A stretch of DNA of 64,000 bases from Tetmemena sp. SeJ-2015 (lineage: Eukaryota; Ciliophora; Spirotrichea; Sporadotrichida; Oxytrichidae). The stretch spans positions 43,876-107,875 of the forward strand of contig JAJKFJ010020858.1 of the NCBI GenBank assembly GCA_027382625.1. Direction: 5' to 3'. The notes beneath the pieces are model-generated. The model was not told the origin of the DNA. It did no database searches and saw only the letters and a list, made by a program, of their open reading frames with translations. Shown here one piece after another: positions 21,304-49,137 of this stretch (position 1 is its first letter; each line of letters starts with the position of its first letter). The position numbers and the translations under genes are program-made.

Positions 21304-24300
21304 ATGAATGTGCCTACGTATTAAGTGAATCATAAGTTGAATAAATTGCTCTCGGTCACTTCATACGATAGTTTTGATTAGATCATGCTCTCATTGATAC
21401 CCGAGATAGTCACAATATTCCACCCTTACAATCAATCTTAAAAATAATTGCTATTTTAATTGACATGAATTTGCCATTATTTTTCTACAATGCTTTGCAA
21501 AAAAGTTTAAAAATCACTAATAAAATTTCAAAAGAAGTAATTAGGAAAATAATCAAATAGAAACTTAAATTACCCTGTAAACAATACCAAAGGATATAAA
21601 AAATTATCCTTTACTTTATAAATTTGATGTGAATATTTATTACTATTTTGATTATTAAATCTTTAACTTAAAACAAACGTGTCTTATAAACTTAAATCAA
21701 ATTACTAAAGCTAACTTACTCAATCACATTACATCCAGTCTAGAACAGAATGGCATCGGCAATCACTATGACAAAATATCTTCTCAGAAGTAAGCCTATC
21801 AACTCTTCATATCAGCAATCTCAAACATCTTATAGATCAAGCAGTAAAGCAAAATACAGCTCAACTTGCAAACTCTTTCGGCCAGAGGAATGCAGCATTA
21901 TCAAAGCTCACTAAATTCGGCCTAGGATCTTAAATAATATTGAAAATTATTAATAGATTTGGGATCTCTAATGATGTATGGTCTCACATCGGACGAGAAT
22001 TCACCATTTAAGCAGCTATTACTTTCTTCATTGATGATGAGCAAGGCAAAGAACGAGTGCTGTGGTATTGTAGGATACATTGGAAATCAGCCCAAAGCTG
22101 GGGAGGTCTGCATTTAGGGCCTACAGATCCTAGAGTCTAGAGGGTATGACTCGTGCGGTATAGTTTCTATCGACTAGCAGGGGAAATTTGTGAGGACCAA
22201 GTTTGCCTCCTCAGACAGATTTGGAGGAGATTGCATCAAGCGCATGGAGATGGAAGGCAGAGGTTAGCATGATCACTGTATTGGTATAGGTCACACCCGC
22301 TGGGCAACTCATGGAGATAAAACAGATGTGAATGCTCATCCTCATTATGATCATAAAGAGAGAGTAGCGTTAATACATAATGGCTTAATCGAAAACTATC
22401 ATCAGCTAAAGGAGGAACTTCGTGATAAGTACCACATAACCCCTGTGTCTCAAACTGACACTGAAATCGTTGCTATCTATATTGGAATCTTCTTGGATTA
22501 AGGCTTTGAGCTTTTCGAATCCATTAAGAAGTGTGTAGAGATACTCGAGGGAGCATATTCGTTCGTACTAATTTCAATTCTGGATCCTGAGAGTATGTAT
22601 ATCGTTAAAAATACAGGCACTATGGTGATTGGAGTTGCAAAACAGCTTCACGCAGTCGATGAAGAGGAAGTTAAAGTTCTTAGAAAGGAAAGTTTAGATA
22701 ACTTGAACACTTAAGCTGCCCCAAGGGATGATCACCTCTTCTAGATTGTCGCTTCAGATACAACTGTGTTCCAAGACTACACAAAGCACTACTATAACAT
22801 AGATGACAAGGAGATCATTAGAATTTCAATAAATGAGAAGGTTGAGCGCCATAAACTTCGTGAAATCAAGGAAGAGGTAGTTAAGGTAAAAAAGCCACCT
22901 GGAATCGATCACTTTTACATTATGGAGATGAATGATCAACCAAATGCTGTGTGTAAAGCGCTTAATTATGGAGCTAGATTCCTGACAGGCTAGCCAATGG
23001 TGAAACTTGGAGGACTTGAGCAGCATGAAGAAAAGCTACAGGAAATTGATAATCTGATTATTGCAGCTTGTGGTACATCCTTCTATGCCGGTCAATACTG
23101 CGAGTATCTAATGAGAGAGCTAAATATCTTCCAATATGTTATTAAACAACATAAATGACAGAGTTTAAATCTAATTTTTATGTAGAAGCTAAAATTGCTA
23201 GTGAGATTACTGATATCGACCTGAATATTAAAAACGGAGGATTCCTATCAGTATCTTAATCAGGAGAGACTATGGATCTTCTTATCCCCTTCAGAAGAGC
23301 GAAGGAGCACGGACTTACTCGCCTAAACGTAGTTAATAAAGTTATGTCAACTCTTGCTCGTGAGGAGAACTGCGGAGTTAATATTTATGAGAGTTATTTA
23401 AATTTAGGAGTTTTCTTGAATTGTGGAAGAGAACTCTCAGTTGCCTCAACTAAGGCTTTCATATCTTAGGCTACAGTTTTGACTTTGGTGGCTCTTTGGT
23501 TTGCTCAGCGCAAGAACTTCAAGGGCTCCAAAAAGACAAGAGCTTCTATAATTTCAGAGCTAAGATTAAAAAGGACTATATTGTTTACTAATACTCTTTA
23601 ATTCTTGTCTTCTAATGTGCAGAAAGTTTTAGACGACTGCCCTTCATTTTCGAAAAAGGTAGCTGCAGATATAAAGTAGTACAAGCATTCAATTAATTTG
23701 ATAGTTTATACTTTATAAGCACTTGTACTTGATGAGCGAGGGAATTGGAGAAATAGTCGGTAAGGAAGGAGCTTTGAAAATAAAGGAGCTAACATACAAC
23801 CACTGCCAGTGTCTTAATATAAATAACGTCAGCAATCACTTCTTCAACTACGCTAGCAAGAATCCTGGTACTCCTGTCATCTTCATTATCAATGAATAAA
23901 CTTTTGCGTATGCATTTATTTTTCTTTTCATTGTACTTGAAGGACCTAATAGAGATATGATGCTCGAGGGCATGAGGCTTATATCCTAAAAAGCAAATCT
24001 AACTCCAGTAGTCATCACATATAAAAGCTAAGCAAATTATCATGCTTTACTAAAGAATAGGGATGAAAGGTTAAATTTTTAAATGCTAGAAATTAATGAA
24101 AATAAAATGTGGACTGCTATTTTTTATAAAAAAAGATTTGAATATAATTTTATGCAACCAATCGTTCTTGAATTTTATTCAAATCTTTATAACATTTTGT
24201 GAACAAGATTTTAACTTAAATTATCAAATGCTAATTTACCTGTTCAATTAATTATTCACTTAATAGAAGTTTCTTATTAAGAAAGATTTATGGAATGTTT

Positions 24301-27300
24301 TTGAACTTATTTAAACAGTATATTGACAAAATATTGTTAAGGAATGTTAGACTAACTTTCTCTTGAAGGCGTGACCATAATCTTAAAAAGTAAGATTTAA
24401 ATATTTTAATCTGATTGTATGCTTGGCATCGAACTTAATTCTTACTCTCATCATAGTAAATCTTTTTAATTTAAAGAGAGTATTGGAAAAATAACTTCTC
24501 ATTCATCCTATTAACGAGAAAAATAATAGATTTAATTTTTTATTTTATTGAATACCATTTCTTCAATAATATTATTAACATCGATAAAATAATATATAGA
24601 CACTTGATGAGCAATTAAAATAGCAACAACACTTAAACATTAAAGCAGAAATCGAAATTGAAGGAACTAACTCATCTCTCAGTGGGGATCCTACTCATGT
24701 ACATGGCCTTCAATTCAGCATCTAATATCCAGCCAGTAGTGCTTGACAATGATGGCTATGGCCAATTGGGCTTCTACACACTAGCAGTTCTCTATTTGTG
24801 TATGGGCATAGGAAGCATAATCTCAACTGCAGTCATCAATAAATTGGGATCAAGATGATTATTAAATTTTAGCTAGATGGTGCCTGATCATTGGAGGACT
24901 TGGAAATGTGTAGTGGATTTTCTGCACAATCCTAGCAGCAAGGACACCAAACAATCCTATTTTATCACGGGACTAAGATTCTGCAACAGACTAAGCCTCA
25001 ACCTTACAAGCTGTAATGATGCTAGATCATATCCCTAAGTTCGAAGTTCTGTCAGGAATCTCTGCAGGCGCGCTGAATCATTTGCATTTGACTCCGAAAA
25101 TAGTAGTCGCTCTCTTCCTGGCTTCTACTGTTTGGAATGGTTTGACAGTTGGAATCCTGTGGGCTTGCGCAAATAACTTCGTGGCAAGATGTGCCACAGA
25201 GGAAAACAAGGGATTTGCTTTCAGCTACTTTTGGAGTTTTTATATGTGCTCTTAGATCTATATATATATATCTAGTAATAAAGTTTAATTGTTTAGAGAT
25301 AGCGGGTAATTTCGTGGCTTCATTCACATTGGGGCGATTCAGCTAAACAGTATTCTTTCTAGTAATGGGATTCATTGCTTTCTTAGGGACATTTACGTTT
25401 TACTTCCTAGAAGAGCCTAAAGAAGAGAAAACTGGCAGCTCAATAGAGAATGGACTGGAAGAATCTATTGGGAGAGTGTCGCAAAGATAGTTATCAAAGT
25501 AATTTAATTGAAACACAAAAGGTAGTCTATATATTATCTGACTAGCAGAATTTGTAATAAAATGGATTCGCAGACGACGTGAAAGCAGTATTAGAACTTC
25601 TGAGAAATAAAAGAATGAGGATGCTGATTCCTTAACTCTGCTGGACGGGAATCTCAATCGCTGTTTACACAGGAGTCTTGGTGCCGACTGTGGTAGCAAC
25701 GCTTCCTGATGCTTCTAAATTAAAATGAATTAATTATTTATTCTGAGCAAGAGCAGTTCAAGCACTCTATGATGACTATGGTGGCTCTTGGCTTTAACGC
25801 CAACTATATATGTCTTTTTAAGTTTCTTTTGCTTTGGTGAAATAATCGGGGCTAATATTCAAGGCAGAATTGTAGATAAATTAGGGACAAAGAAAACATG
25901 TTTGCTAAACGTCGCATTGAATTGAGAAACTATAAATGAGTGTGTTTTTAATTGATCTTGATATCAACACTGTTTGTACTGAACTACTTGCACGCCAACA
26001 AATTCACCTACTTTGCTTTTGTGATGACGTTTATGTGGGGCTACCAAGACAGCAGTGTCTCAATCCATCTCAATTCTATACTTGTATTTATTATAGTTTA
26101 CTATATCTAGATTTATTTGACTTGGTTTTGAGTTTGAGGGGAACTCAGAGCCGTTCAGCATCGATGCGTTGATAGAGGCGATTATGGTGTTCACTTTCCA
26201 AGTTATTCAATCCTTCGTAATGAGTCAGCAAGCTCACTTCTACTATATCAGTGCAGTGGGCATGCTCGGCATACTCATGACTCTCAACACCTGAAACTTT
26301 AAATTTAAAATGGAAATATAATTTGACTTGGAACATAATTTTCTCAATTTATACACCTATTACTTCGATTACAAGGACCAAAGAAAGCAGTCGCTAGTAG
26401 ATTCTCCAACCATCGACACGGAAAATCTTTTGAACCACAAACACAAAACAATATCAGAGTTAAGCAGCAGCAGCCGTTAGCAAACTTCATCTAAAGCCAA
26501 AACAGTTGATGAGGATCTCCAAACTGAGGAAATTATGAATGGCTAACCAGAGATAGAATTAGTTAGTGCTATTAACTCAAAGCCCATAAATCTTTCCTAT
26601 TAATTTGAATGATTATTAAAAGCTAATGAACGAGGCTGCTCGTATACCAAAGATTGATAGCAATGAAGAATTTAGATGACAAGACTAAAATATGAAGGAT
26701 ATCATAATATTTAAGAGTTAATAAAAAGACGCAAGCCCAAAGTCAAGATTAGTAAGAATCTATTCTTAAAATATTCCCTCTGCCGATGAAAAGCGATAAT
26801 GATGATGATATTGATTATTGCTTGAGACAAGAAATTTGAAAAATTTTGTATCTATATTTTTTTAATGATGTGAAATTCAAACTATCCTCATCCTAATCAC
26901 TCTCAAGATGATAAGATATATCTATCACCACAATAAAATTAACAAAAGGAATTCTTCTTTAATTTATCAAATTAAATGCCAAATTCCAATTAATGAATGA
27001 AAGATATATAGTTTTGAGTGCACAGAAAAATAAAGGAAATTTTAGTATCAAAGCTGCAACATTAGTAATTACCAGATCTGAATAGTAAGTTAACCTGAGA
27101 GTTTTATTGTCTAAATAAAACAAGAAATTAAATAATTTAAATTTAAATCTAAGCTTTTATTCGCAAAATAATATTAAAGATATCAAAATTTTAAAATACA
27201 ACGCTAAAAGTTATAGATTCCTTCTCTTTGTTTAATATCATAAACCTATCATATTCCTTAAATTATAGTCATAATAATTAAATTTCTACTCATTATTACA

Positions 27301-30300
27301 ATGGCGAAGTACAATAATTATAAAATATAATATTTAAAAACTGAAAATTTAAATAATTTAGGTCACGTTACATATATATCCCTGGGTATCTTGCTCCTGT
27401 ACATGGCACAGAACAGCTCAGCCAACATTTAGTCAGTCATCATGGAGGAAAATGGTTTTGATTCCCTAGGCTTCTACATCTTGGCTTCTCTTAATTTAAG
27501 TTACAATCATATGTTATATATGGTTGGCTGTTCTGTATCTTTTCATGGGGATTGGAAGTTTGCTGTCAACAGCAATCATAAATAAATTTGGCACAAGATT
27601 TTGTCTTGTCATGGGAGGCATCGGCAATAAATATACTTAATTTATATATTCTTCAATGTGCAGTGGATATTGAGCACTCTCTTAGCAGTATATTAAGAGC
27701 AGATAATGGCTGCAGGAGTACCTTCAGGTGTCATTTACACAGGCCTTATCCTTGCAACCATTATAAACGGATTCACAGTTGGAATTCTGTGGGCAAGTGC
27801 TAATCAATACATAGCTGACTGTTCAACCGATTATATTCCTGAATATAATAACAGAGAACTATTTAAGATCGCATTTTTGTATCTGACTATAATAAAGGGT
27901 TCTTCTTCTCGTATTTCTGGTCCTACTATATGACATCTCAAATATTCGGAAACCTCACAGCGGCATTCGTCTTAGGACACTTAGATCAAGGCAATTACTT
28001 CGAGATTATGGCAGTGGTTGCTTCTATTGCGACCGTGTCATTCCTCTTTATCCGCAAACCAAGAAAATAAAATTAAATACAATTATAGAGCATATCTTAC
28101 AGCATTTATTATTGATTTATGGGAGTAAATAAAGCCTGGGCGGATTCAAATTGAAACTGGTGGAAGAAAGTCTAAACCGTACAGAGTCAATAGACACCGT
28201 TAATGATCTAAGAGAAGAGGAAGCACAGCCAGGCTTCGTAGAGGATATTAAAAATGTCCTAAGATTGCTTGTTTCAAAAAGAATGAGGCCGTTGGTCCCT
28301 CAACTCTGCTGGACAGGTGTGAGTATAGCTGTTTACACAGGTATCTTACTACCTATTATAACCGATACACTTCCTAATAATTTTAAATTAAATCTATTGT
28401 TGTATTAAATCCTTAAGAAGATGGGCATTAAAGTTTTACCTATCGATGCTTGCAATGGTATCTTTAGGAGTTGGTGAGATTTTCGGAGCAATAGGGATGG
28501 GAATAATTGTAGATAAAATTGGGTCAAAGAAATCGTGCGTAATAAACGTTGTTCTAGTACTACTTCAAACTGGCGCAGTTATTTTATACCTCCTTCTAAA
28601 TGAGTACACTTGGGTTGCATTCTTAATGACATTATAAATATATGAATGATGTGTATCTGATTTTTCTAAAACCATTTTTGTGGGGCCTGCAGGACAGCAG
28701 CATAAGTATACACTTAGATGCAATCCTAGGTTTTGAGTTTGATACTAACAAGGAGCCGTTTGCTTGTGACATTCTTATGGAATCTATTTTCGCATTCTCG
28801 TTTGAGATCATCCAATCTTAATATTTATTATTGTGTATGAGTGCATTTATTTGAAGGATTTATCTTTTATCAAAGGCAGATACGAAAGAATAATCTATAT
28901 CAAACATACTATAAAATTATTACATATTTTGTATATCAGTGTTGTTGGAGCAATCGGAGTAGTGTTTTGCTCAAGTTCTTATTTCTTCGAATACAAACCT
29001 GACGCTATTCACACTGAAGACCGCTCCAGAATACATCGTCTTAATAAAAATATTAAAGTTTAGTTTTTTGTATCGTAAGTCGTTTATCCTAAATAAGCCA
29101 GCTGAGGATCTCTCAGACCCTAACATCTCATATTTATAGCATATATAATAAATGATAACAGCTACCTAATAAACGAATGAAAACTATCAAATAACTGAAT
29201 CACGAGGGCTTGAGAGCAGCTAATAGCAAAAGTTACAAATCTTATCAATTAATCAAAAATTAACAATCATTCATTTCCACTTGCTTTTATTGGATAAATT
29301 AATGTGGTTTATAAGTATTAGCCCTATGTGATAATCAGCAAATAATAGTATGAATGTAAAGCTTTAGCAAATTAAACTACATTATTCTCTTCATTAAAAA
29401 TATCATTTCCTCAAATTTAAAATCAAGGTCAGCTAATCTCATCACTATATTCATTTATTAGAAATGAAATGAAGGACAAGTAAGAAAAAAAGATATTAAA
29501 TATTTTTATTCCTGAAGTTATAGAATACATATTTGTAAAATTAAGGATATAAATTAGCAGGGTGTTGCAAACACTTCTAAAAGTTAATAATTAATTCACT
29601 ATAAAAATAATTAACTATTATCACACACAAAATATAAATAACCATGAGGGAAAAGATCAACAATACTAATTCTACCTATCCTTAACCTCACAGCTGGGCA
29701 CAAATTCCTCTGGTTTAGCCAAGTGCAAATCTAAATCATTCCGGATAATTTAGTTGAGCCAGTAACAAGAAAGAAAATAGTGATGTTCTCAAAAGGAATT
29801 TATGGAACTGCTTTTGGTGTGCTTTCGCGACATTTTTGCTTTATACATCCATTTACTGTGCATCACTTATTCAGAATTCACCTGCAAATAAGAACCAGCG
29901 AATACAGAACTACTCTTTAATTTTAATTTGAAAGATTTTTACTCAAGGTATTTCATCTTGCTTGATAACTTTGCATAAGCTGTGGGAAGTTTATTAAGCG
30001 TTTGGCTGATAGTGCGAATTGGTCCCATCTAGACTATGGCGATGGGAACTCTACTTTGCTCCCCATACGTTCTATATCTGATAGCTCCTGACCTTAAATG
30101 CGAATTCGAGTGCCATCATGAAGGAGGTGGTTCTATTGATTTTAGATGCATTTATTTTTAAGAAAGACTATTGATGAATACCTGCTTGACGATTGGTTCA
30201 TCTCATTCTGCTTCATCTACTTTAGTTTTATCAACGGGGTGGGTCAAGGAGTTACAGTAGTTGGAGTGTTGGTTTACACAGGTTAGTGCTGTTCGTAGCT

Positions 30301-33300
30301 CAAAAACTGGCGTGGGATATTTTTTGCGATTAGCTGGGCAGTTTACATGGTTTCTCATGTGATTGGGAATATCACAGCAATCTACCTACTCTATCAGCTG
30401 GATGAAATTAACTACGTATTTCTATTAGCTATAGTCCAGTTGTGCACAAAGTTTATTATTTCATTTATTAGTGCGGATGTTTCGTCTTCTTGACGCTCCG
30501 AAATCCGGAATTACAACAAGAGCAGATATCATTCACCAATTCTCTAAACGATGTTGATTGTTTATAATTGAAATGGAATTTATAGTTGACTACTTGACAG
30601 TAGATTATACCTTCAATTCAAATTGTATTAGATAGTTTAAGAGTTAAAATATTCAGGCCATACTGCTTTTAAACAGTCTATTTAAATAGATGACGAATAA
30701 GAGCATCAGCCCTTTGCCTTAATATACGAAGAAAAAGATAAAGTTTTAAGAGAGGAGAACTCTCTCAAAAGTAAAGTTCCATTAAAAGAAGATGAAATAC
30801 TAGACGATGAGCACATTAACAATATGTCAAATGCAGAAGGCTACTTCACTTCTTTCATGAAAAATAGAGTTGCGCACTGGAAAGGACTAACTGAAAATGC
30901 TAACATCAAATCTATAGATTTGTTGAAGCTTTTGTTAAAGCAACTGGTCGAAAAGCGTACCAGAGCTTTTTTGCCATATGTGGTTTGGTCTGCTATCACT
31001 ATATCATTCAACAAAACAGGCATAGACTAAGCGATAGTACAAAAGACTTCAACTGGAATAACAGCTTCCGATATTTACATATACACTTAAACTATAGTTC
31101 TTCCTTTGAGTCTGGGAGAGATAGTTGGCTCATTTGTGATGGGAATATTAATAGATAAGTGCTCTGAAAGAGTACAATTCATAGCTCATGCTCTGATAGT
31201 GTTTAACAGTATAGCCTTCACTGCTATATTTGTCTACATACATGGGAATTACGAAGTCTTAAGTATAATTATGGCCTTCTGTTGGGGTTTCCTAGACGGA
31301 GCTCTAAATGTTCACGCACAGATAATCTATGCATTTGAGGTTTAAGTTAAATTTATGAACTTATTTTATGAGGCAAAAGAGCAAGTAATAGCTTTTGCAA
31401 TTTTCAATACTCTCTAAACAATAGTTGGAGCAGCTATAGATCCTTTATAGGAGCTGCCCTTTCAAGTTTTACTGGCTACGGCTGCTTTATTGGAACTATG
31501 TGTCTATTTGGACTTCTAAGTTCTTTACTTTGCTATAATTATTTGGCAAAGAAATGATCTGTAAATATAATTCCTTATAAGAGTATTCTCATTATAATCC
31601 AAATTTCTTCTTCAAAATGTTCATTATACAAATTAGGCTTAATCATTTGGTAAACATCAATTCTTAAACTTAACTTTTCCCAGTTGGGCAATAGTAATTC
31701 TAAAAAAAGATATATTATCTCAAAATATAATTAAAGTCTCTAGTATGAAACAAGACTTCATTAATTTCAAGCACGCCTCACTCTGTGCCATCGCATTTTT
31801 AGGCGTGTATGTAGCAGTATACTCAGCGTAAAATGCATAGTCTTAGATCGCTTAATTTTGCAATCATACAATTCCTTTAGTGTGATTTAAGATGTATGAC
31901 TCAGATGGATACAAGAACCTAGGCTACATTTCAAATGCAGTTGCATATGTTGGATAAGGAACGGGCAGTATTTTCTGTGTATATGTGATGCAAAGAGTAG
32001 GAGATGTGCGAGCTATGGCCTATAGTGCCTTGCTGTCGTTACCTTTTATAATCAGTCTGCTTCTTCCAGCGCTGCGCTACAAATTCGAGAAAGATAATTT
32101 CCTTTTCTCCTACATATTTGTGGCGATAGTTACAATCTTCACTTCCTTCCTTAACGGATTCGGAGGAGGGATAAACTAACCAGCTTCGGGCAAGTACATT
32201 TCAGATTGTGCTACTGAAAGGACTAAGGGATTCTTCTTCGCATATTTCTGGGCGTTTTACATGGGAAGTCAAGTCATTGGCAACATGATAGCCTCACTCT
32301 CACTCGGGTACTTGGAGCAATACTACTACGTGCTCATTATGTTAGTCATTTGCTCGCTTGCTATCATTTTACTCTTCTAACTTAAGCACCCTCATCCCCA
32401 TCAACCAGAGAATCCCCATCCAATTCCTTAAAATCATAATCATAGCGAATAAAGGAGCCAACTTCCTATAATAATATTATCTAAATTTAATACAGCAGAT
32501 GTATTAAGATAGAGAAGAATTAAGATACTTTTTTATTAAGACTAGTTTGACTATAATAAAAGGATTCAAGTAAAATAGTGTATAATATTTTTTAATAGAA
32601 TAGCTATAACTTGGCGATTAATGCGGATGATGATGTGAATCAAAGTTTGATATCCTCATCTGAGATTGATCTCATCCCAAGCAGCAATTAAAATGAAGAT
32701 GGCAATGATCACGGTTATCATCCTCCTTAATAAAACAATGAGATGCAAGTGCTCCCCTTTAAAGAAGTAGTTGCTTCACTTTGGCGCTTAGTCACCTAGA
32801 AGCGCTTCCGCCTATTCATTCCTTAACTTGCTTTCACTGGAGTCAGCATTGCCTTCTTCTCAGGAAATCTAGTTGAGCTAATGTCACTTACTATAAAAGG
32901 GGATGAGCAGGAAAAGTTCAAGAATGCTATGGCTGCCATGATCTTATTTGGAGTTGGTGAAATCCTCGGGTGTTTCTTTATTGGACTGGTGGTTGATAAG
33001 TTAGGAAGCAAGATAGCCTCAGGATGCCTGATAGTGATTATGATTACGATGACTCTCGTGACTCTTGTCTACTGTGCAGTTTGGGAATTCGGGTGGCTTG
33101 CATATCTCATGTGCTTCCTGTGGGGATTCCAAGATTCCTCAGTGAATACACATGCTCAAGAGATCTTAGGTTTTGAATTCGATAACAACTTCGAGCCTTT
33201 CTCAGTATTCAACATTTTGCAGTGCTCAGCCTGCGCCATCTTCTAAATTATTGAAATTGGAGTAGTAGACTAGAGAGACTATGTTATCTTCACTATTGCA

Positions 33301-36300
33301 ATGGAGTGATCGGTGTTTTGTGCTGCTCAAGTATGCTATTCTTTGACTTTAGAGAGGCAAAGAGTCACAAGGATTTCAAAAAAGTAGCGCCAGAGCACAA
33401 TTTATCCTTTCATTTAATTCTATCACATTTGACCTATTCCATTTTATAAAATGCTGCTGAAGGAACACATCATGAAAATTTGAATGAACTACTTCAATCT
33501 GATAATTCTAAGCTCGAAGAAAATAACAGACACAGTCACGAGACTCTAGATGATTCAAGCATCATTGAATAATTCATAGATTCATTATTTAAATTGCATA
33601 ATTGAAGAGTGAGACAGATTGAAATGAACATCACTTTTCTTTCAAAGCATCGATAAGGTTATCAGTATTTATCAAGGTATGAATTTAATTCATTTAGAAG
33701 TTTTTAAAGATTTATTAATACTACTTATCAAGATACTACTTCAATTTCGCCCTTCAGATTCATCAATCTTAGAGTGCTTCCAATTTTTAAAGCAATTTGA
33801 TTATAGTAATTTAAATTGAAATGAGCGAAGTAATAACTTAAAATATTTCAACTACTCCACAAGGACAAGTTATGAACTCAAAGGGTAGTGCATAGTCGCC
33901 ATTCAAATCATCGTTGCAACGATCACTGTCACCAAATCATTCAATCCAAATGCAGCATGATACTTAATACTTGAGGAAATCTAATTACAGATAAAACATT
34001 TGGCAAGCTACTCACTGCTCCTTAAATTTCTTGGGACTATTTACTGCTTTCAACGCTGCTTAAAATATTCAATCAGAGGCTCTGGAAGAAGATGGCTTTG
34101 GAAAGCTGGGCTTCTGGGCAATCGGAATTTTGTATCTTTCTATCGCCTTTGGCTCTCTTACTTCGGCCACAGTTGTTAACAAGATTGGAGATATCAAATC
34201 CATGGCATTCATTATATTATAGTTGAATTCTTCATTATAAGTGATAGTAATTGTTATTGGGATCAATGATTAACACTCCCTGGATTTTTGCGTTTGCTCT
34301 CTGCGGCTATGTAAAGGAGCATCCTGAAGACACTGGATTTTATACTAACAAGGAGTTCATTAAAAATATTTTTGATTTGAAAAAGCAAGATAGATATTTT
34401 ATTCATAACATTCTTGATCTTAATTCTGTCAGTGATTAACGGGTTTGGTTAGGCTATTTAATGGGTGGGCAAGGCAAGTATATGTCTGACTGCGCCACAG
34501 AAGAGACTAAAGGCTTTTTCTTCAGCTATTTTTGGGTATTCTATATGTCTATATTTACATCATTATAATTTTACCATTTTTAAATGTCTTCTCAGATAAT
34601 CGGAAATCTGATAGCAGCCTATTGTTTGCGGACACTAACTCAGTCGCAGATGTTCCTGATCCTAGGTCTAATCTCTTTTGTCTCCTCTATAAGTTCGCTT
34701 TTCCTATCCAAGCCTAATATAAACCACCACCAGAATATCTCAATCAACTATCATCTCAACAACCCTCAAAGCCCCACTAGAAACTCAACTGCAAAGTCAT
34801 TACATTATATAGAGATACATATTAAGTTTACAAAGAGAACCAACTCACCAAATATCATGAATGGAAAACCCAATCAGCATCATCCACTTAATGATGAGCC
34901 ATTTAAGCCGAATCTAGCAATCAATGAGGGGAGCGAAAGTCCAGCCATGCTAGACACTCGATCTCAAAGATACGGTTCCTCCTAAATCTTTATTTTATTA
35001 CTAAGTAGTCCAGGGAGGATAAGGATCGCAAATGGATCCTCCTGCTAAGAAAACACTTAAAGATGATATTAGATCTGTTGCTTTTATGATGTTCTCACGA
35101 AGAATGAGACGAATGTTTCCATAGCTTTTCTGGACAGGAATCTCGATTAATTTTAATAGTGAATGATTTCAATAATATTTTACTACGATTGCTTATTACT
35201 CAAGTGCTCTCACATATATTCATTTGTTTAATGATTATAAAAGTTAAAGAATCACTCCTATGATTACCGATACTCTAAAGACAAGTCATAACAGACTCGA
35301 GAAGTCAATAATGGCTATGGTTATTTTTGGAATAGGAGAAGTAGCAGGAGGCATCATCATAGGGCAAGTAATCGACCGACGAGGATCTAAATATGTTTCC
35401 CTTGTTAATTCAGGAATAGTGATTTTGATGACGTTTGTGTCTCTAGCATTTTTGGGGATCAATGAATTCAACCTCTTAGCTTTTCTGATGACCTTCTTGT
35501 GGGGCTTGTAAGATGCAACTGTAAATACTCACTGTTATGAAATGCTGGGCTTTGAATTTGAAAATAACTTTGAGCCCTTCTGCATTTTAATTACTTGAAT
35601 AAGAAGAATGCATAAAATACATTTACAATTACATTTTCAACTTGGCCCAAGCACTTGGAGTTTTCTTTTTCTAGATTATTGAATCAAGTTTGGACAGCAG
35701 AGTTAAGTATCTGGTTTACACTGCTTTTGTGGGGCTGATAGGGCTGTGGGCGTGCAGTCTCACCTACTTTTTCGAATTCAGGGAGATCAATAGTCAGCCA
35801 CCTGAAGTAAGACAGTCAATTATCAATCATTCTTAAATCCATTTATATTATCAAAGAATTATTCTTATATTTTTAAATCATTCTCAAATGATGTGCGAGG
35901 AGAATCATCATAGACAGCAAAGTATTATTCTTGACACTAATAGCAATCAGTATTTAAATAACTAGAGATTAATTAATATTTAAAAGATAATGAATAATCT
36001 AAATAGCAGCAAAATGAAAAGAGAAATCATCCTAGATATTGATATTTGAATGTTTTATTAAATTACTATTCTCAAAGATAATTCTTAAAACAAGATCAGA
36101 CTATAATTTCTTGTATTACTCTCTATGAAATAAATTTGAATTCCATATTAAATATACTGGTGAGTATTTATAAGATTTTATTGAAATAATTTTGTTAATT
36201 AGTCATCACAGATGTTACTGATAAGAACTCTCGTGAATGGTTAGAGGCTTATAGCTGCGGACGCCTGTTCACAGTGCCTCGCTCTGGCTATCTATCTGCT

Positions 36301-36561
36301 CTTCTCTGTGTGCTTCCACTCTAAAGACTCGCCTACGACACCACAGTCGCCCTCGGCTTTGATCCAGACAGACCCAGAAATCTAGCTAATAGATAAAATA
36401 CTTATGTTTTGCATTATAATGAATCCTGCTTATAAAGAATGATTTATCAATAAGTTAAAAATTATAAAGCTTGTTACCATAAATATTACTTAGGTATATC
36501 TTTTAGCAAACCATATCTAGTTTATTATAAATAAATCTATAAGGAGCTAACCACAAAATGA
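21304..36561 (+). CDS. glucosamine-fructose-6-phosphate aminotransferase (GFAT), split germline gene
   Basis: Makes glucosamine-6-phosphate from fructose-6-phosphate and glutamine. The glutaminase domain starts at CCGIVGYIG (Cys codons 22058-22063), with [10 protein letters not shown] and [11 protein letters not shown] domain 1 has [12 protein letters not shown] and SVSQSGETMD, and SIS domain 2 begins with [14 protein letters not shown]. The body stops at PVVIT (24019). The missing end lies 12.2 kb downstream at 36200-36561: [43 protein letters not shown] and TGA 36559-36561, joined through an 11-bp repeat. Upstream, helical sequence from ATG 21304 and from about 21680 reads into the catalytic domain and would form a long N-terminal extension; its linkage is inferred. 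Many IESs are listed separately, and one more insert lies near 23575. Confidence 0.88.
21925..21961. other. IES in GFAT 5' region, 37 bp, pointer GGATCT
   Basis: GGATCT repeats at 21925-21930 and 21962-21967. Deletion joins LTKFGLGS to [10 protein letters not shown] in frame with the glutaminase domain, which supports the N-terminal extension being part of this gene. Confidence 0.75.
23135..23178. other. IES in GFAT, 44 bp, pointer TATGT
   Basis: TATGT repeats at 23135-23139 and 23179-23183. Deletion gives [15 protein letters not shown], as expected between the first SIS motifs. Confidence 0.85.
23374..23406. other. IES in GFAT, 33 bp, pointer GGAGTT
   Basis: GGAGTT repeats at 23374-23379 and 23407-23412. 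Deletion gives [20 protein letters not shown]. The 33-bp insert keeps the frame open if retained. Confidence 0.85.
23683..23716. other. IES in GFAT, 34 bp, pointer AAGCA
   Basis: AAGCA repeats at 23683-23687 and 23717-23721. Deletion gives [19 protein letters not shown], the start of the second SIS domain. Confidence 0.85.
23893..23937. other. IES in GFAT, 45 bp, pointer TGAA
   Basis: TGAA repeats at 23893-23896 and 23938-23941. Deletion joins PVIFIIN to [14 protein letters not shown]. Confidence 0.75.
24020..24606. other. AT-rich spacer inside the GFAT interruption
   Basis: Noncoding-looking DNA between the GFAT pointer and the first transporter start. Only low-complexity open frames seen. 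Confidence 0.5.
24607..26612 (+). CDS. UNC93-like transporter, copy 1
   Basis: Member of the UNC93 branch of the major facilitator superfamily (PF05978), multi-pass membrane proteins. The ATG at 24607 gives a short Gln/Asn leader. Hydrophobic helices begin with [20 protein letters not shown]. The mid-protein signature is [19 protein letters not shown] (about 25190). After a polar loop the second half starts at [19 protein letters not shown] and carries [13 protein letters not shown] and [11 protein letters not shown]. The charged C-terminal tail (Ser/Glu/Lys) ends at TGA 26610-26612. At least six interruptions were read, four with clear pointers listed separately. Closest to copy 2 by eye. 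The transported substrate is unknown. Confidence 0.85.
24853..24874. other. IES in UNC93-like copy 1, 22 bp, pointer AGATG
   Basis: AGATG repeats at 24853-24857 and 24875-24879. The insert contains an in-frame TGA; deletion joins NKLGSR to [10 protein letters not shown]. Confidence 0.85.
25254..25296. other. IES in copy 1, 43 bp, pointer AGAT
   Basis: AGAT repeats at 25254-25257 and 25297-25300, flanking a TA-rich run. Deletion gives [15 protein letters not shown], as in the paralogs. Confidence 0.85.
25791..25830. other. IES in copy 1, 40 bp, pointer GCTTT
   Basis: GCTTT repeats at 25791-25795 and 25831-25835. Deletion gives [14 protein letters not shown]; paralogs read VALGVGEMIGG or [11 protein letters not shown] here. 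Confidence 0.85.
26080..26119. other. IES in copy 1, 40 bp, pointer ACTTG
   Basis: ACTTG repeats at 26080-26084 and 26120-26124. Deletion gives [17 protein letters not shown]. Confidence 0.85.
26613..27300. other. AT-rich spacer between transporter copies 1 and 2
   Basis: About 690 bp with no conserved coding; the longest spacer within the first five copies. Confidence 0.45.
27301..29331 (+). CDS. UNC93-like transporter, copy 2
   Basis: Starts at ATG 27301 with a Tyr/Asn-rich leader. The first helix contains [19 protein letters not shown], very like copy 1. [17 protein letters not shown] follows after two IESs. The signature corresponding to CATEENKGF is split by an insert: CSTD, then [15 protein letters not shown]. 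The second half shows [45 protein letters not shown] and [11 protein letters not shown]. The polar tail, rich in Gln, Asn and Glu, ends at TGA 29329-29331. With copy 1 it forms the most similar pair in the array, consistent with a late duplication, although the IES positions of the two copies differ. Confidence 0.85.
27481..27523. other. IES in copy 2, 43 bp, pointer TTGGCT
   Basis: TTGGCT repeats at 27481-27486 and 27524-27529. Deletion gives [19 protein letters not shown], matching copy 1. Confidence 0.88.
27625..27653. other. IES in copy 2, 29 bp, pointer CAAT
   Basis: CAAT repeats at 27625-27628 and 27654-27657. Deletion gives [15 protein letters not shown]; copy 1 reads [15 protein letters not shown] uninterrupted. 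Confidence 0.85.
28630..28672. other. IES in copy 2, 43 bp, pointer CATT
   Basis: CATT repeats at 28630-28633 and 28673-28676. Deletion gives [16 protein letters not shown]. Confidence 0.85.
29043..29091. other. IES in copy 2 tail, 49 bp, pointer AATAA
   Basis: AATAA repeats at 29043-29047 and 29092-29096. Deletion links SRIHRLNK to PAEDLSDPN and keeps the polar tail open to the TGA. Confidence 0.7.
29644..31557 (+). CDS. UNC93-like transporter, copy 3 (divergent)
   Basis: Same fold and position in the array, but clearly diverged. ATG 29644 opens a polar leader. The first helix is [18 protein letters not shown]. The next block has [16 protein letters not shown]. The usual [13 protein letters not shown] signature is replaced by [15 protein letters not shown]. 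The second half retains [19 protein letters not shown] and a variant [13 protein letters not shown], where other copies have WG.QDS. GFEF becomes YAFE followed by an IES (pointer TGAGG near 31338). TGA is at 31555-31557. The loss of conserved polar signature residues suggests altered substrate or relaxed constraint. One or two frame changes near 30200 and 31440 remain. Confidence 0.75.
31745..33605 (+). CDS. UNC93-like transporter, copy 4
   Basis: ATG 31745 is followed almost at once by the first helix ([20 protein letters not shown]), a shorter leader than in other copies. Landmarks: [18 protein letters not shown], a long loop, [39 protein letters not shown], then a His/Pro/Asn-rich linker and an AT-rich insert near 32480-32600. 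The second half, [53 protein letters not shown] and [15 protein letters not shown], is uninterrupted for over 400 bp. A one-base break near 33303 precedes the last helix. The Glu/His/Asp-rich tail ends at TGA 33603-33605. Confidence 0.86.
31845..31889. other. IES in copy 4, 45 bp, pointer AGAT
   Basis: AGAT repeats at 31845-31848 and 31890-31893. The insert contains an in-frame TGA; deletion gives [18 protein letters not shown]. Confidence 0.85.
33821..36049 (+). CDS. UNC93-like transporter, copy 5
   Basis: Last copy inside the GFAT interruption. ATG 33821 opens an ~65-residue Ser/Gln-rich leader, then [30 protein letters not shown] and [20 protein letters not shown]. The central linker is long and polar (His/Asn/Pro-rich, about 34700-34985). 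The second half has [19 protein letters not shown] assembled over two IESs (pointers CGATT and TCAC), [30 protein letters not shown] and [11 protein letters not shown]. The tail is Gln/Asn-rich and ends at TGA 36047-36049, 150 bp before the GFAT C-terminal segment. Another IES, pointer TTAT, lies near 34218. Confidence 0.85.
34545..34583. other. IES in copy 5, 39 bp, pointer ATGTCT
   Basis: ATGTCT repeats at 34545-34550 and 34584-34589. Deletion gives [17 protein letters not shown]. It falls within about two codons of the AGAT IES of copy 1. Confidence 0.85.
35583..35631. other. IES in copy 5, 49 bp, pointer CATTTT
   Basis: CATTTT repeats at 35583-35588 and 35632-35637. Deletion gives [19 protein letters not shown], matching copies 4 and 6. 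Confidence 0.88.
36387..36539. other. IES in GFAT 3' end, 153 bp, pointer TAA
   Basis: Joining at TAA (36387-36389 and 36540-36542) gives DRPRNLAKELTTK and a TGA. It restores the NLAK motif that carries the C-terminal catalytic lysine of GFAT. Without it the sequence reads NLAN. The pointer is short, so the call rests on the protein end. Confidence 0.72.
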
Positions 36562-37369
36562 AAGTTTAATTTGTGGTCAGTTTCTTTTAACGCTATCAGA
36601 TCTTATAATTTTGAGGAAATACATCTCTTTTAGATAAAGCAATCAATCTAAATCGTATGAATTTATTACAAATATTACACAAACAAGATTCAATTTTCGT
36701 GCATCATCAAAGAAAAGTAAGAGTAAAAATTCTAATTTAGAACTAAATCAAATCATAAATTCTTAATTAACTTAAAATTTATAAAGAGCATAAATTTAAA
36801 AGTACTAACATGGTTCGATTGTAAATTAAACCTCCCAAAAATTAATAATTGATTTTTATTTTATAATATTTCAGATATCTTGCTCTTGAGTTGAGAATAA
36901 TTGGAAATTCTCAAAATTAAAAGTTTTAATTTAATTTTTAATATAAATTAGATATAAAAGTCTCTTCACTTAATGTAATTTATTTTTGACAGAAAAATAA
37001 TTTAAAAGTTAATTACTCTTAAAAATAAATCTAAATATTAAAATACAGTATTGAGAGACTAATTATTTCTTAAATTATTTTATACTCCTTTTATTTATTC
37101 TTCATCATACAAAATATAATAAAAAAAGTATTTTCGAATTAATTTAAACAAGCCTCCAGTAATTCCTATAATAAAATATATGCTGATCATTAGAGTTTTT
37201 ATTATTATTTTTAAATGTTTTTTTTTATTTCAAATAAAGAAGATGAATATTAAATTAAAATATTTGTAAAATCAAAATTCAAATCGTTTAAAGACAATCA
37301 CTAAATATCTGAGAGTCTAATAATTTTGATATCAGCAATTTAAATGGAAAGTCAATTAAATTTTGTATT
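36562..37369. other. AT-rich spacer after GFAT
   Basis: About 800 bp, the most AT-rich long stretch here, between the GFAT stop and copy 6. No coding signal. Confidence 0.5.
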
Positions 37370-39341: not shown

Positions 39342-39504
39342 TTTAACAATATAAGTTTTAGTTTCAAGTTCTCAGTATGTAAAGATCTATTTGTAAATTG
39401 TTGTTTTTCTCTTTTGATAAGTCTTAAAATATTAAGGTAAAGCAAGCATATAAAAAAATCAGGAGGAATATATCTCTATTATAATTTTTATAGAATACTT
39501 AGCA

Positions 39505-41225
39505 ATGACAGAAAAGTATTCCGATGCTGAGAGTTAAGGTTTCTCAGCACGCTTCCCTAACTTTGGCTCGCTAACTCTTCTATCTCTGGGTATTCTGATG
39601 CTTCAGACGGCCTACACTTCCACAGCTAATAAAAAAATGCTCATAGTATTTATATTTACTCTCTAACCTTGTATCCTTGATGCTTGAGAAAAACGGCTAC
39701 GGTCCTTTGGGGTATCTGTCAATAGGATTCATCTATATATCTTGGGGACTCGGCTCTTTTATTTCACCCACCATTTATAGGAGATGGGGCTCCAGATTCT
39801 CCATTTTCATTGGGACTTTCAGCAATTCGACTTGGATATATTCTTCTATCATTACCCTAGTTGAGAGAGATGAGGATGCATCCTTGCGGCCTTGGTATCT
39901 CTCAGACTAGTTTGTGTATTCTCTGGTGCTCACTAACTCCATGTTCAATGGCTTCTGTAATGGGCCGATGTGGGTGGCTCTCTGTAAGTAGATCGCCTCT
40001 TATTCCAGTAAGCAAACCTATGGTATGTACTTCAGCTACTTAAAATAAACAATGTAAGCAATTTTCAATAGATTGTGATGGCTTTGATTACTTCTGGGTG
40101 TATTATATATCTTCACAGATTTTCGGAAACTCGATCGCCGCATATGTACTCCAAAACTTTTCTTAACTAGCTTTCTTCATTATAATGGGGACACTCGCCT
40201 TGTTTGCTTCCTTCTACTTCTACAGTCTAAAGTATGATGACGATGACAAGAGGAGGAATAAAAACCAAAGATCTAGTCAGAAGACTAGTTCTGGAGAGTT
40301 TACAAATCTTGAAATAGAAGAGGAGGAATAGGAGAAAGATCCTGGACTGGTAGAAGGAATCAAAGATTATAAATGGAGGGTAACATTTAATTATGTTTTA
40401 AAGATGTGGTGAAAATGATTGGCCATAGAAAAATGAGATACCTCATTCCTTAGATCTTCTTCACAGGAGTGTCAATTGCCTTCTACACTGGTCTCTTTGT
40501 GAGCTTTATATTCTAAACTCTGCCCTCAACCTTTTCTCAACAAGAGCAGTTTTCCAAGTCGATGAGCGAAAAGTAATAAAAGCAAATTTCTTTATTAGAG
40601 CGTTATGAGTTTGATAGGGCTGGGTGCTTTGTTTGGAACTATTCTAATTGGATTCACCTATGACAAGTTCGGTCATAAGCCTGCCTGCGTTTAGAATATT
40701 TCTATTCTAGCAGTCAATTATATATTACTATTTATATAAGCTTCGGAAAGTTAACTATTGAGTGGTAGCTTTGTTTGTGCTGGCTTTTGGAAACACACGT
40801 GAGTATAACTATCTGGTTTTTATGATGACTCTGACTTGGGGCATGATGGATGCGAGCATGGCTACTCACTGCTACTCCTCACATGAAATTAAATGGACAC
40901 ATTATTTTCTCACTAGGAGTTGAATTCGATGACAACCCAGTGGGGTACGCTCTCTATAACTTATTCTAGTCCTTGGGAGTGCTTATCTTCTAGCTGATCC
41001 ACATAAACATTAAGGGATGGGAAATGTTCCAACCCTACTCTTGCTTCGTTCTGCTCTTTGGCTTGTTTTGCTTCTCGGTCTCTGTCAAATTAAATAAACA
41101 TAATCATTATTGCTAAGATATTAATCTCATTCTTTATGCCTGGCAGCAAGTCTGGAGAGAATAGCCAGTCAACTGTAAGTGCTGTAGAAGAAAGGCTACT
41201 TCAAAAAGATAATCAGTAACCTTGA
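39505..41225 (+). CDS. UNC93-like transporter, copy 7 (divergent)
   Basis: ATG 39505, short leader, first helix LTLLSLGILMLQTAYTSTAN, then GYGPLGYLSIGFIYISWGLG. The signature is degenerate: SSKQTYGMYFSY followed by FWVYYISSQIFGN across an IES. The linker is strongly acidic (DDDDKRR, EIEEEEQEKD). The second half has [51 protein letters not shown] in place of WG.QDS.NTH, and GVEFDDNPVGYALYN. TGA is at 41223-41225. Pointers CTAA (39629) and TACTT (40037) and two more listed below were read. Together with copy 3 it is the most diverged member. Confidence 0.78.
40362..40399. other. IES in copy 7, 38 bp, pointer AAAGAT
   Basis: AAAGAT repeats at 40362-40367 and 40400-40405. Deletion gives VEGIKDVVKMIGHRKMR. 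Confidence 0.85.
40564..40597. other. IES in copy 7, 34 bp, pointer GAGCG
   Basis: GAGCG repeats at 40564-40568 and 40598-40602. Deletion gives EQFSKSMSVMSLIGLGALF. Confidence 0.85.
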
Positions 41226-41477
41226 ACTAGAAGAATAAATATATTAGCATAAATTATTTTATATCTTAGTTACTATTTAAGAATTCTTCATCATTATTAT
41301 ATGTATGATAACAATATACCTTTCATTAGCTAATTTTATAAGGCATTGGAACATTAAAATAAGGAAATCGGAGAAAGAAATGTAGATTATCTTCAATAAA
41401 AAATTAACTTCATAAGTTAAAATATACGAAAATATAATCAAAATAATAATTCTAAATAAAGAATACAGGATTTCTAA

Positions 41478-43076
41478 ATGCACTATAATTTCAATGCAGA
41501 TAAGGATGGGACTCCCAAATAAAGAGTCACTAAATATACCAATTTCTGGAAAGCTTATAACGAATTGATATATGCTTTTATTTTCATAAAATTTATTCAA
41601 ATTACTGTAATAGCAACTTGCTCTAGGTTTTCTAGTGCTCTTCATAGCTCAGGCCTCAGCAATAAATCTCCAAGCCAGAGTTATGAATTCAAATGGATTC
41701 AACTCCTTGGGAAATTATAATCTGGCTGCGCTATCTATCTTCTGTGTTTTCGGAGGATTTCTTTCTACATCTTTCATCAAGAAATTAATCTATCATAGTT
41801 ATTTAAGATTGAAATGTTAGATTTAAGAAATTAGGAATTAACATCAGCTTGGTGATAAGTGTGTTAGGAATATCTCAGTGGATTCTCTGTTCAGTTCTCC
41901 CAGCTTTGAGAACAGCTGCCGATCCCTACGACCAGGAGCATAACATCCTCTACAGTTAGGGTTTCATATACCCAGTGATGATAGTATCCTCTTGCGTCTG
42001 CGGATTCGCAACTGGTATACTCTGGACAGCTCAAGGCGTCTACACTTCTCACTGTGCGACTGAAGAAAGCAAGGGCTTCTATTTCAGTTGCTTTTGGACT
42101 ACCTATACAGGGTCTCAAGTGGTGGGAAATCTAATAGCTGCTTTCATTCTTGGCAACATGGATCAACGCAACTACTTCTATATCATGACTGGAATTGCCC
42201 TCTCGTCTTCCTTTATATTCGTAACTCTAAGGAAGCCACTCAGGCAATAGGATATTGATAGTCAAAATAAGAAGTCAGCAGTCGATAACGCAGCTCTTGA
42301 GAATAAAGAGTCTTCTTCAGACAGTCTGTTGATGCATAGTCCGGGAAGGGTGCAAGCAGTAGCTATCGAACCGCAGGATTAAACTGTATGGGAAAATATT
42401 AAAGGTGTCTGGAACTGCTTCACATTATATAAATAGTATTCACTGATAGAAGAATGGCACTATTCTTGCCCGAGACAGGCTGGACTGGAGTTTCAATTTC
42501 CTATTACAGTAGCATGCTTGTACCATAATGACTGCTTGCTTAATAGCAGATGGAGACTTGGATGATAAATACGAGTTCAAGTGGTCTATGATAGCCATGG
42601 TTGCCCTCGGAGTTGGAGAAATGATAGGAGGTTAGATAATTTGAATGTATTTTATTGAATATACATTTCGATTAATAATTGGACAGGTAGTGGATAAGTT
42701 TGATTCTAAGAAGGCTGTGTTTGTGATCCTTGCAATATTTTTGATAATGATGGGTTTCACATTTGCCTAAATTGGAGTGTTCAGCTACTGCTGGATATCT
42801 TTCGTGATGTGTTTCTTCTGGGGCCTTTAAGACAGCGCTGTGAACACTCACGTATTTGAAATGCTTGGTTTTGAATTCAACCACTCTGATGACGCTTTTG
42901 CGATTTACTCTCTGATTCAGTCGATAATGTCTTTTATCTTCTAGTTCTGCGAAGCATGGGTGCTCACTTAGGAGCAGTTTTGGATTTACACTGCGATAGT
43001 GGGAGTCCTTGGATTTCTGTGCCTTGGGTGCACCTACTTCTTTGACTTCAAGCCATCCCACAAACAAATAAGTTGA
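41478..43076 (+). CDS. UNC93-like transporter, copy 8
   Basis: Final copy. ATG 41478 opens a short leader ending NFWKA. An AT-rich insert near 41545-41610 precedes the first helix LGFLVLFIAQASAINLQ (one-base shift near 41633). Further blocks: IFCVFGGFLSTSFIKKLG, a loop, GVYTSHCATEESKGFYFSCF, GSQVVGNLIAAFILG and a short linker. The second half begins RRMALFLPETGWTGVSISYY (one-base shift near 42526) and carries VALGVGEMIGGQIIGQVVD, FFWGLQDSAVNTH and GFEFNHSDDAFAIY. It ends soon after the last helix at TGA 43074-43076, with the shortest C-terminal tail of the array. Confidence 0.84.
41779..41824. other. IES in copy 8, 46 bp, 9-bp pointer AAGAAATTA
   Basis: AAGAAATTA repeats at 41779-41787 and 41825-41833. 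Deletion gives SFIKKLGINISLVISVLG. The longest pointer of the small IESs. Confidence 0.88.
42419..42438. other. IES in copy 8, only 20 bp, pointer TTCAC
   Basis: TTCAC repeats at 42419-42423 and 42439-42443. Deletion gives GVWNCFTDRRMALFLPE, with the RRM motif that starts the second half in paralogs. Confidence 0.82.
42636..42674. other. IES in copy 8, 39 bp, pointer ATAATT
   Basis: ATAATT repeats at 42636-42641 and 42675-42680. Deletion gives MIGGQIIGQVVDKFDSKK. Confidence 0.88.
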
Positions 43077-43529
43077 GTATATACTTTTACGAATTTATAA
43101 TAAGTAGCAGCTATAAGTCAATCCTCTATCAAATTTATCTATCTTTACTACTTTTAATTTGGATATTTTATTCAATCATAAAACATAATTAAGTGAGGGG
43201 CTCTATAACAATAAATTAAGGAATGTGATTTATATAATACAATTTGAATGAGTTTACCAAAATGTTTTATAGTCAATTCCACTAAATAACACTTTTGTAA
43301 ATAAGCTACTCTAAAATTATAGCATTAAATATTTCAAAATTAAAAGATCGTATTTTAACAACCTGAATGATTAATTTGTTTTTTTGCATTCGTTCATGAG
43401 GTTGTGTAAATGAAAGTAGGAGTAAATTAAAGTAGTTAAATTAAATATTAAATTAAAAAGGGTTGATAACCTACATCAACTATTTCTATATTTCATCATT
43501 AGAAATTATAGAGTGTGAGTTTTTATTTT
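43077..43529. other. AT-rich spacer at the end of the transporter array
   Basis: About 450 bp without coding signal, between copy 8 and the next + strand gene. Confidence 0.45.
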
Positions 43530-44467: not shown

Positions 44468-44538
44468 TAAGGTGAATTCATTTTAATATCGATAAGATAT
44501 ATCAAAGTCAACATTCTAACACACACTTTACACTACTT

Positions 44539-45999: not shown

Positions 46000-46339
46000 A
46001 TTATTATTCTCCTTCTTGATTTCTATCCCTCTCTAATTTGTAATTATAAATTTCTCCTCTTTTAAACTTTAAATTTCAAATCATCCATCCTTCACCTCCC
46101 TCTAAATTTTAAAATTGCCAATTACATCATCACCATGTAACTTGCCTATTTTATTATAAGCGTGTGAGTAAGGTAGAAGTTTGAATTTTAATAATTGTTT
46201 AAAATATTATAGAGTCAAAGAAATAAGAATACTCACCCCTCAAAACGAACTAACTACTTTTAAAGTTAACTCACTCATAAATTGTAAATACACCGCCTAC
46301 CTCAAAGAAGGATTATAATTATAATTGGTGTTAGAAATC
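46000..46339. other. divergent intergenic region, CDK7-like / katanin
   Basis: 340 bp between two divergent starts. AT-rich with pyrimidine tracts near the CDK start. Presumed promoters and somatic chromosome ends; no specific element identified. Confidence 0.4.

Positions 46340-49137
<2,798 letters not shown>

What the first reader, a model, noticed from the sequence alone, without database searches (positions are those of the whole stretch)
24009..36561. GFAT gene split by 12.2 kb that houses five complete UNC93-like genes
The GFAT body ends at PVVIT with TAGTCATCACA (24009-24019). The same 11 bases occur at 36200-36210 and lead directly into the missing GFAT C-terminus ([31 protein letters not shown], stop). 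Joining at the repeat gives an unbroken enzyme. All the intervening DNA, including five transporter loci on the same strand, must be bypassed. The repeat is longer than the 3-9 bp pointers of ordinary IESs here. Nested germline loci are known in Oxytricha; one enclosing five tandem paralogs would be an extreme case. It raises the question of how excision is ordered so that both GFAT and the inner genes survive.
Basis: partly seen in the sequence, partly recalled or inferred. Interest (0 to 1): 0.92.

Follow-up and report, generated by a model that had tools for sequence, protein, structure and literature searches.

The report
Enzyme gene straddling five transporter genes
In the germline genome of a ciliate, one enzyme gene is cut in two by 12.2 kb of DNA that holds five transporter-like genes, and its halves must be rejoined at a matching 11-letter tag during development: a broad but recognisable case of the nested genes already known in this group.

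Summary
A GFAT-like gene breaks at TAGTCATCACA (24009-24019); the only other copy in the window (36200-36210) leads into the missing C-terminus. Joined there, the product aligns without a gap to a Stylonychia lemnae GFAT through the join to the last residue (345 of 430 identical). Chance of such a run at a fixed offset: 2 of 198,748. The 11-bp pointer exceeds 36 ordinary IES pointers from stricter models (2-7 bp; looser models reach 9).

A second, 95% identical contig carries the same left junction and 6 kb of the insert. Between the contigs the GFAT body shows 30 synonymous and 0 nonsynonymous differences; its five small IESs carry indels, its coding segments none. So GFAT is under strong selection. 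The right junction rests on one contig.

Corrections: the array has eight copies, not five, and GFAT's tail sits between copies 5 and 6. The copies are old paralogs and the inner ones are not a clade, so the array did not grow inside GFAT. Copy 3 is very divergent.

Nested loci, and long pointers bridging several loci, are published for Oxytricha and Tetmemena; this one is one layer deep but five genes broad. No somatic sequence of this species was available; the join and excision order are inferred.

The parts
22010..24019 (+). GFAT body: six coding segments (22010-23138, 23183-23377, 23411-23566, 23603-23686, 23721-23885, 23931-24019) separated by five small IESs of 44, 33, 36, 34 and 45 bp with pointers TATGT, GGAGTT, ATT, AAGCA, TTCATT; start codon not fixed (candidate ATG at 22034)
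   Evidence: spliced alignment to S. lemnae P0001; C295 has indels in all five small IESs and none in the coding segments
24009..24019 (+). left copy of the 11-bp pointer TAGTCATCACA
   Evidence: also present once in C295
24020..36199 (+). long IES of GFAT (12,191 bp from pointer to pointer) holding UNC93-like copies 1-5
   Evidence: left 6 kb also in C295
24607..26612 (+). UNC93-like copy 1 (u1), ATG to TGA, several small IESs; closest P0126 (68% identical; Oxytricha by accession style)
   Evidence: dN/dS 0.12 between contigs on the looser model
27301..29136 (+). UNC93-like copy 2 (u2); closest S. lemnae P0125 (72% identical, its contig 1,717 bp)
   Evidence: dN/dS 0.14 on the looser model
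29970..31540 (+). UNC93/MFS-like copy 3 (u3), very divergent; 5' end not defined
   Evidence: model score 430 against nulls 111-176; long branch
31721..33368 (+). UNC93-like copy 4 (u4)
   Evidence: a piece is over the PF05978 cut-off
33974..35784 (+). UNC93-like copy 5 (u5)
36200..36210 (+). right copy of the 11-bp pointer TAGTCATCACA
36211..36561 (+). GFAT C-terminus: 36211-36388 and 36542-36561 (TGA at 36559-36561), separated by a 153-bp IES with pointer TAA
37403..39239 (+). UNC93-like copy 6 (u6), outside the GFAT IES; closest P0121 (Oxytricha by accession style)
39598..41174 (+). UNC93-like copy 7 (u7); closest P0128 (75% identical; Oxytricha by accession style)
41613..43138 (+). UNC93-like copy 8 (u8)

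Best explanation
This is a nested germline locus of a hypotrich-like ciliate. The GFAT-like gene's somatic chromosome is made by joining its body to its C-terminal segments across a 12.2-kb non-scrambled IES at the 11-bp pointer TAGTCATCACA, one copy of which is kept. The IES holds five UNC93-like genes, most likely each processed into its own small somatic chromosome as their relatives seem to be in Stylonychia. Most likely course (inferred): small IESs go first; then a template copied from the old macronucleus guides the long-range join. The enclosed genes survive either because the removed piece is itself processed and capped, or because different copies of the polytene DNA take different fates. 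In evolution the transporter array is old and GFAT's tail lies inside it. Shown here: the split, the repeat, the in-frame and homologous product, purifying selection on GFAT, u1 and u2, and the age of the array. Inferred: the join itself in this species, retention of all five inner genes, and the order of events.
For: The repeat is unique in the window and lies at the homology break. Joined product gap-free against the S. lemnae protein in MAFFT, 345 of 430 identical, tail 46 of 65; that protein comes from a 2,554-bp contig with no room for the transporters. C295 (about 95% identical, colinear with window 9231-29977) carries the same left junction. GFAT body 30 synonymous / 0 nonsynonymous differences over 606 codons; u1 28/12, u2 26/13; no indels in GFAT coding segments, indels in 5 of 5 small IESs. 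Pointer 11 bp against 2-7 bp in 36 ordinary IESs. No intron reading: 0 of the 7 removed GFAT segments can be cut GT-AG to the same product or, within 9 bp, in frame. Two other GFAT paralogs of the genome (C4714, C3059) are not split at this place. S. lemnae relatives P0125, P0127 and P0129 lie on contigs of 1.6-1.7 kb. Inner copies are not a clade.
Against: No somatic or RNA sequence of this species was seen; the GFAT body was found only in C1937 and C295, both with IESs, and the tail only in C1937, so the second contig's own tail is missing from the assembly. The right junction is covered by one contig. Identity to the relative is low just before the join (16 of 40), and the spliced model itself put a one-residue insertion at AYsC just after it. 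The body model was fitted to the same relative it is compared with. An 11-bp match somewhere between two random 121-bp stretches of this region is not very rare (14 of 986). Looser models show pointers of up to 9 bp. Selection on copies 3-5 could not be tested; one poorly defined 3' segment of u2 has a 1-base indel between contigs. Nothing here shows the order of excision.
Confidence: 0.88

Rival explanations
1. The contig is chimeric at its right side, and the GFAT tail does not lie 12 kb from its body in the real germline.
For: Only one contig covers 30-46 kb; no second copy was found for 36150-36600 or 36600-46000, nor for the part of 24000-36250 beyond 29978. No read data were available.
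Against: The tail is flanked on both sides by copies of the same same-strand array, so two chimeric joins in the same family would be needed. Both halves of one gene, with an exact pointer pair in the right frame, share one contig of a 146-Mb assembly. The window has no N. The left junction is independently present in C295.
Confidence: 0.05
2. The body at 24 kb ends there in the soma (telomere added near 24.2 kb), and the tail at 36.2 kb is a duplicated leftover or belongs to another GFAT copy.
For: The frame reads on past 24019 for about 60 codons to a TGA.
Against: That extension does not resemble the end of the relative's protein, while the far tail does, without a gap. By DNA search the body occurs only in C1937 and C295 and the tail only in C1937. 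Body codons show no nonsynonymous change between the two contigs, so a truncated enzyme is unlikely.
Confidence: 0.04
3. The five enclosed copies are mostly germline-limited or decaying and are discarded with the IES, so nothing has to be rescued.
For: Copy 3 is very divergent (branch 3-4 changes per column). Retention was not seen directly.
Against: u1 and u2 evolve under purifying selection (dN/dS 0.12 and 0.14) and have close relatives in other ciliates. All eight copies score far above null models.
Confidence: 0.12
4. The 12.2 kb is an ordinary RNA intron with nested genes, not DNA removed in development.
For: Whole genes within introns exist in animals (PMC5940158, introduction).
Against: No GT-AG cut gives the same product, and none within 9 bp of the ends keeps the frame, for the long segment or for any of the six small ones (0 of 7). 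All seven have direct repeats at their ends.
Confidence: 0.02

Closest known systems
Nested and 'Russian doll' loci of Oxytricha trifallax (Braun et al. 2018, PMC5940158; parts 1-3 of 4 of the text read)
   Same: Coding segments of other somatic chromosomes lie inside an IES of an outer gene. There, 1,301 of 15,811 somatic contigs enclose segments of others and 1,847 are embedded only.
   Different: Here depth is one layer but five paralogous genes stand side by side in one IES, and the outer gene is not scrambled. The paper counts depth (up to IDI 4, five nested genes); the parts I read give no figure for genes per IES.
Long pointers bridging other loci in Oxytricha and Tetmemena (Feng et al. 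2022, PMC9797194; passages read)
   Same: An 18-bp pointer joins across two other loci, and a long conserved pointer bridges three other loci.
   Different: Eleven bp over five genes and 12.2 kb in one non-scrambled step; conservation of this pointer in a second species could not be tested.
B-type alternative processing in spirotrichs (PMC10901763; passages read)
   Same: A segment of one chromosome lies within an IES of another: 236 genes in O. trifallax, 54 in Strombidium, 16 in Euplotes vannus, 15 in Halteria.
   Different: Those are counts; a tandem array of paralogs interrupted by an unrelated gene's tail is not described in the passages I read.

Membership tests
Nested (embedded) germline locus | coding segments of other genes lie between two segments of one gene on one germline contig | tested here: met
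Nested (embedded) germline locus | outer segments end in a shared pointer repeat that keeps the frame when one copy is retained | tested here: met
Nested (embedded) germline locus | outer and inner genes are each present as somatic chromosomes of the same species | not testable with these tools
   no somatic data; the own-genome search finds the GFAT body only in two IES-bearing contigs; short-contig relatives exist in S. lemnae
Russian doll locus (several layers of nesting) | two or more layers of enclosure | tested here: inconclusive
   one layer seen in 22-43 kb; enclosure of this whole locus by another gene was not examined
GFAT (glutamine--fructose-6-phosphate transaminase) | matches curated family models | tested here: inconclusive
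   joined product: NF001484 405 bits (cut-off 381, met) but TIGR01135 382 bits (cut-off 418, not met); the S. lemnae protein behaves the same, 412 and 390
UNC93 family (PF05978) | score over the Pfam cut-off | tested here: inconclusive
   pieces of copies 4, 6 and 8 over the cut-off (22.9); pieces of 2 (18.6) and 5 (22.2) under; the piece of 1 no match; the piece of 3 only MFS_1 under its cut-off (fragments, not whole models; no piece of 7 was given). The 12 database relatives listed bear PF05978

The most novel reading that the evidence does not exclude
A strongly conserved enzyme gene's 3' end became lodged inside an ancient transporter array, so making one GFAT chromosome and making five transporter chromosomes draw on the same stretch of DNA. 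Their somatic copy numbers would then be coupled, either by ordered processing of the removed 12-kb piece or by competition between polytene copies.
Probability: 0.2. Interest if true: 0.7.

Novelty: new member of a known kind. Interest (0 to 1): 0.45.

Why it matters
It is a clean, non-scrambled test case for how ciliates keep both an outer gene and the genes lying in the DNA it must lose. One pointer pair, one direction and five distinguishable inner genes make outcomes easy to tell apart. It also suggests that broad nesting can arise by a gene end and an old array becoming interleaved, rather than by genes multiplying inside an IES.

Tried and rejected
Array grown inside GFAT: rejected. Inner copies 1, 2, 4 and 5 are not a clade among seven of the window's eight copies (AU p = 0.002; copy 3 left out for its long branch), nor with their relatives against the outer copies and theirs (p = 0.005). 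Earlier, stricter tests (with copy 3, p 6e-5; without, p 1e-5 and 6e-7) rejected it too, but almost by construction, because relatives from other species stand between the copies.

Recent tandem duplication: the DNA self-comparison of the window (E up to 1e-8) found one 93-column match at 77% and no other.

Somatic GFAT contig in the same assembly: none found. Second contig for the right side: none. Genome-wide count of UNC93-like genes (PF05978): not obtained, the machine was busy at every try. Papers on UNC93 in Oxytricha: of 17 papers with two of three terms, the eight listed hold no 'Oxytricha'.

Model limits: the spliced alignments overfit in poorly conserved tails and linkers, and the looser set gives apparent pointers of up to 9 bp; the dN/dS values of u1 and u2 were counted on that looser set. 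A 15-bp 'IES' in GFAT vanished with a stricter penalty, and several 2-bp pointers in linkers are doubtful. First runs of paralog loci L016, L017 and L020 were on the wrong strand and were redone. A frame check started in the wrong frame and was redone.

Species: not identified. Codon use (TAA/TAG = Q) and relatives say hypotrich-like. The size (146 Mb) does not match the three germline assemblies tabulated in PMC9797194 (496, 237, 172 Mb).

Full report
What is there. The window lies at bases 43876-107875 of contig C1937 in a 146-Mb, 5,213-contig assembly whose genes here read TAA and TAG as glutamine (and the alignments). The 11-mer TAGTCATCACA is present at 24009-24019 and 36200-36210 and nowhere else in the window. 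Upstream lies the body of a GFAT-like gene in six coding segments cut by five small IESs; downstream lies its C-terminus in two segments cut by one 153-bp IES, ending in TGA at 36559-36561.

Is the join real? The closest named database protein is a GFAT of Stylonychia lemnae (P0001, 673 aa, from a 2,554-bp contig). I take it as somatic from the contig's size and from recall that the S. lemnae genome in the databases is macronuclear. In the MAFFT alignment the joined product matches it without a gap over its last 430 residues: 345 identical, 46 of 65 in the tail beyond the join, but only 16 of 40 just before it. I placed the join at the repeat myself; the other cuts were fitted to P0001, and the fitting program put one inserted residue in the tail (AYsC). 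Reading on past 24019 instead gives about 60 residues without visible likeness and a stop. A matching run of 11 or more bases at a fixed offset occurred in 2 of 198,748 random pairs of places in the window; somewhere within two random 121-bp stretches of the region it occurred in 14 of 986, so position and frame carry the argument. None of the seven removed GFAT segments can be cut GT-AG to the same product or, within 9 bp, in frame, which speaks against introns. Of the curated models, NF001484 is over its cut-off and TIGR01135 under it, as for the Stylonychia protein.

Second contig. C295 (21,252 bp) is colinear with window 9231-29977 at about 95% identity and ends inside or just before copy 3. 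It is either the other haplotype or a large duplication. It carries the GFAT body, the left pointer copy (once) and the first 6 kb of the insert. Between the two contigs the GFAT body differs at 30 synonymous and no nonsynonymous sites in 606 codons; each of its five small IESs has an indel and its coding segments have none. u1 and u2 show 28/12 and 26/13 synonymous/nonsynonymous differences on the looser models (dN/dS 0.12 and 0.14), with one 1-base indel in a poorly defined 3' segment of u2. So GFAT and at least two enclosed genes are under selection for protein function, which fits somatic use of all three. The right junction has no such check: no second contig was found for 30-46 kb.

The enclosed genes. 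A spliced alignment to four relatives gave scores of 791, 816, 430, 805, 903, 1205, 589 and 668 for eight successive regions from 24.6 to 43.5 kb. Controls gave 111-176: 24 reversed, complemented or shuffled versions of the same regions and 8 other parts of the window. So the array has eight copies on one strand, five before and three after the GFAT tail. Copy 3 is clearly related but very divergent. Relatives named Stylonychia lie on contigs of 1,717, 1,727, 1,644 and 5,369 bp (P0125, P0127, P0129, P0123), so separate small chromosomes are the expected somatic form of most.

Age of the array. u1 pairs with P0126, u2 with S. lemnae P0125, u6 with P0121 and u7 with P0128. That P0121, P0124, P0126, P0128 and P0130 are from Oxytricha rests on the style of their accession numbers (403...) and recall; no call names the organism. 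On that reading the copies split before these genera did. Among the window's own copies (without copy 3) the enclosed ones are not a clade (AU p = 0.002; with relatives p = 0.005); u4 and u5 group with u6, which lies outside. The simplest history is that GFAT's 3' end came to lie inside an existing array, or a block of the array entered GFAT; multiplication of these copies inside the IES is not supported.

The pointer. In 36 ordinary IESs modelled against single relatives in the GFAT body, u1, u2, u6 and u7, pointers are 2-7 bp (mean 4.5) and IESs 22-197 bp; the looser models of all eight copies give pointers of up to 9 bp. The GFAT long-range pair is 11 bp over 12,191 bp. Feng et al. [quoted passage not shown] Braun et al. 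(PMC5940158) suggest that longer pointers might help rearrangement over greater distances. This locus fits both.

How it most likely works. In S. lemnae and O. trifallax conventional IESs are usually removed before larger rearrangements, with template RNAs from the old macronucleus proposed to guide and repair (PMC2394655, abstract and passages). In Oxytricha 86 excised circles may carry coding segments and six of these bear segments lying within an IES of another gene (PMC6765146, passages), so a removed piece can hold coding segments. I therefore think small IESs go first, then the template-guided long join, with the inner genes made from the removed piece or from other polytene copies. I cannot choose between these two with sequence alone.

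Comparison. By the Oxytricha definitions this is an embedded locus, depth one, breadth five. Depth of five nested genes is published. The texts I read (parts 1-3 of 4 of PMC5940158; passages of PMC9797194, PMC10901763 and PMC6765146) give no record for the number of whole genes in one IES, so I claim no record. I therefore call it a new member of a known kind: unusual in breadth and in cutting through a tandem array, not in principle.

Noticed in passing
window 23780-23885: The GFAT product lacks the usual GELKHGP stretch of the isomerase domain (here [18 protein letters not shown]). S. lemnae P0001 shares this, and the stretch shows only synonymous differences between the two contigs, so it looks like a conserved feature of this GFAT clade. 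Another GFAT-like gene of the genome (C2940) keeps a GEFRHGP form. That GELKHGP is the usual form is recalled; the bacterial chain aligned agrees.
   Followed up: partly
G000 contigs C4714 and C3059 (loci L016, L020): Two nearly identical further GFAT paralogs or alleles, each with a contiguous C-terminal segment.
   Followed up: partly
G000 contigs C3096, C948, C1762: GlmS-family matches with no reassigned stop codons inside, which may mean bacterial contigs in the assembly.
   Followed up: no
G000 contig starts, e.g. C298, C586, C672, C739: Eleven of 67 matches to the telomere-like repeat CCCCAAAACCCCAAAACCCC begin within 9 bases of the start of a contig, and C2828 has a long run near 3.8-4.2 kb: perhaps somatic ends or telomere-bearing elements.
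   Followed up: no
window 7407-8627 (-), 10588-11226 (-): Two protein-kinase-like reading frames on the minus strand (names by eye, no family search).
   Followed up: no
window 47488-48426 (+), 53607-56430 (-): Katanin-like AAA ATPase and ABC transporter-like reading frames, the latter spread over several frames (names by eye, no family search).
   Followed up: no
window 24020-24200: The GFAT frame stays open for about 60 codons into the long IES before a TGA; a somatic chromosome capped there would encode a truncated enzyme.
   Followed up: partly
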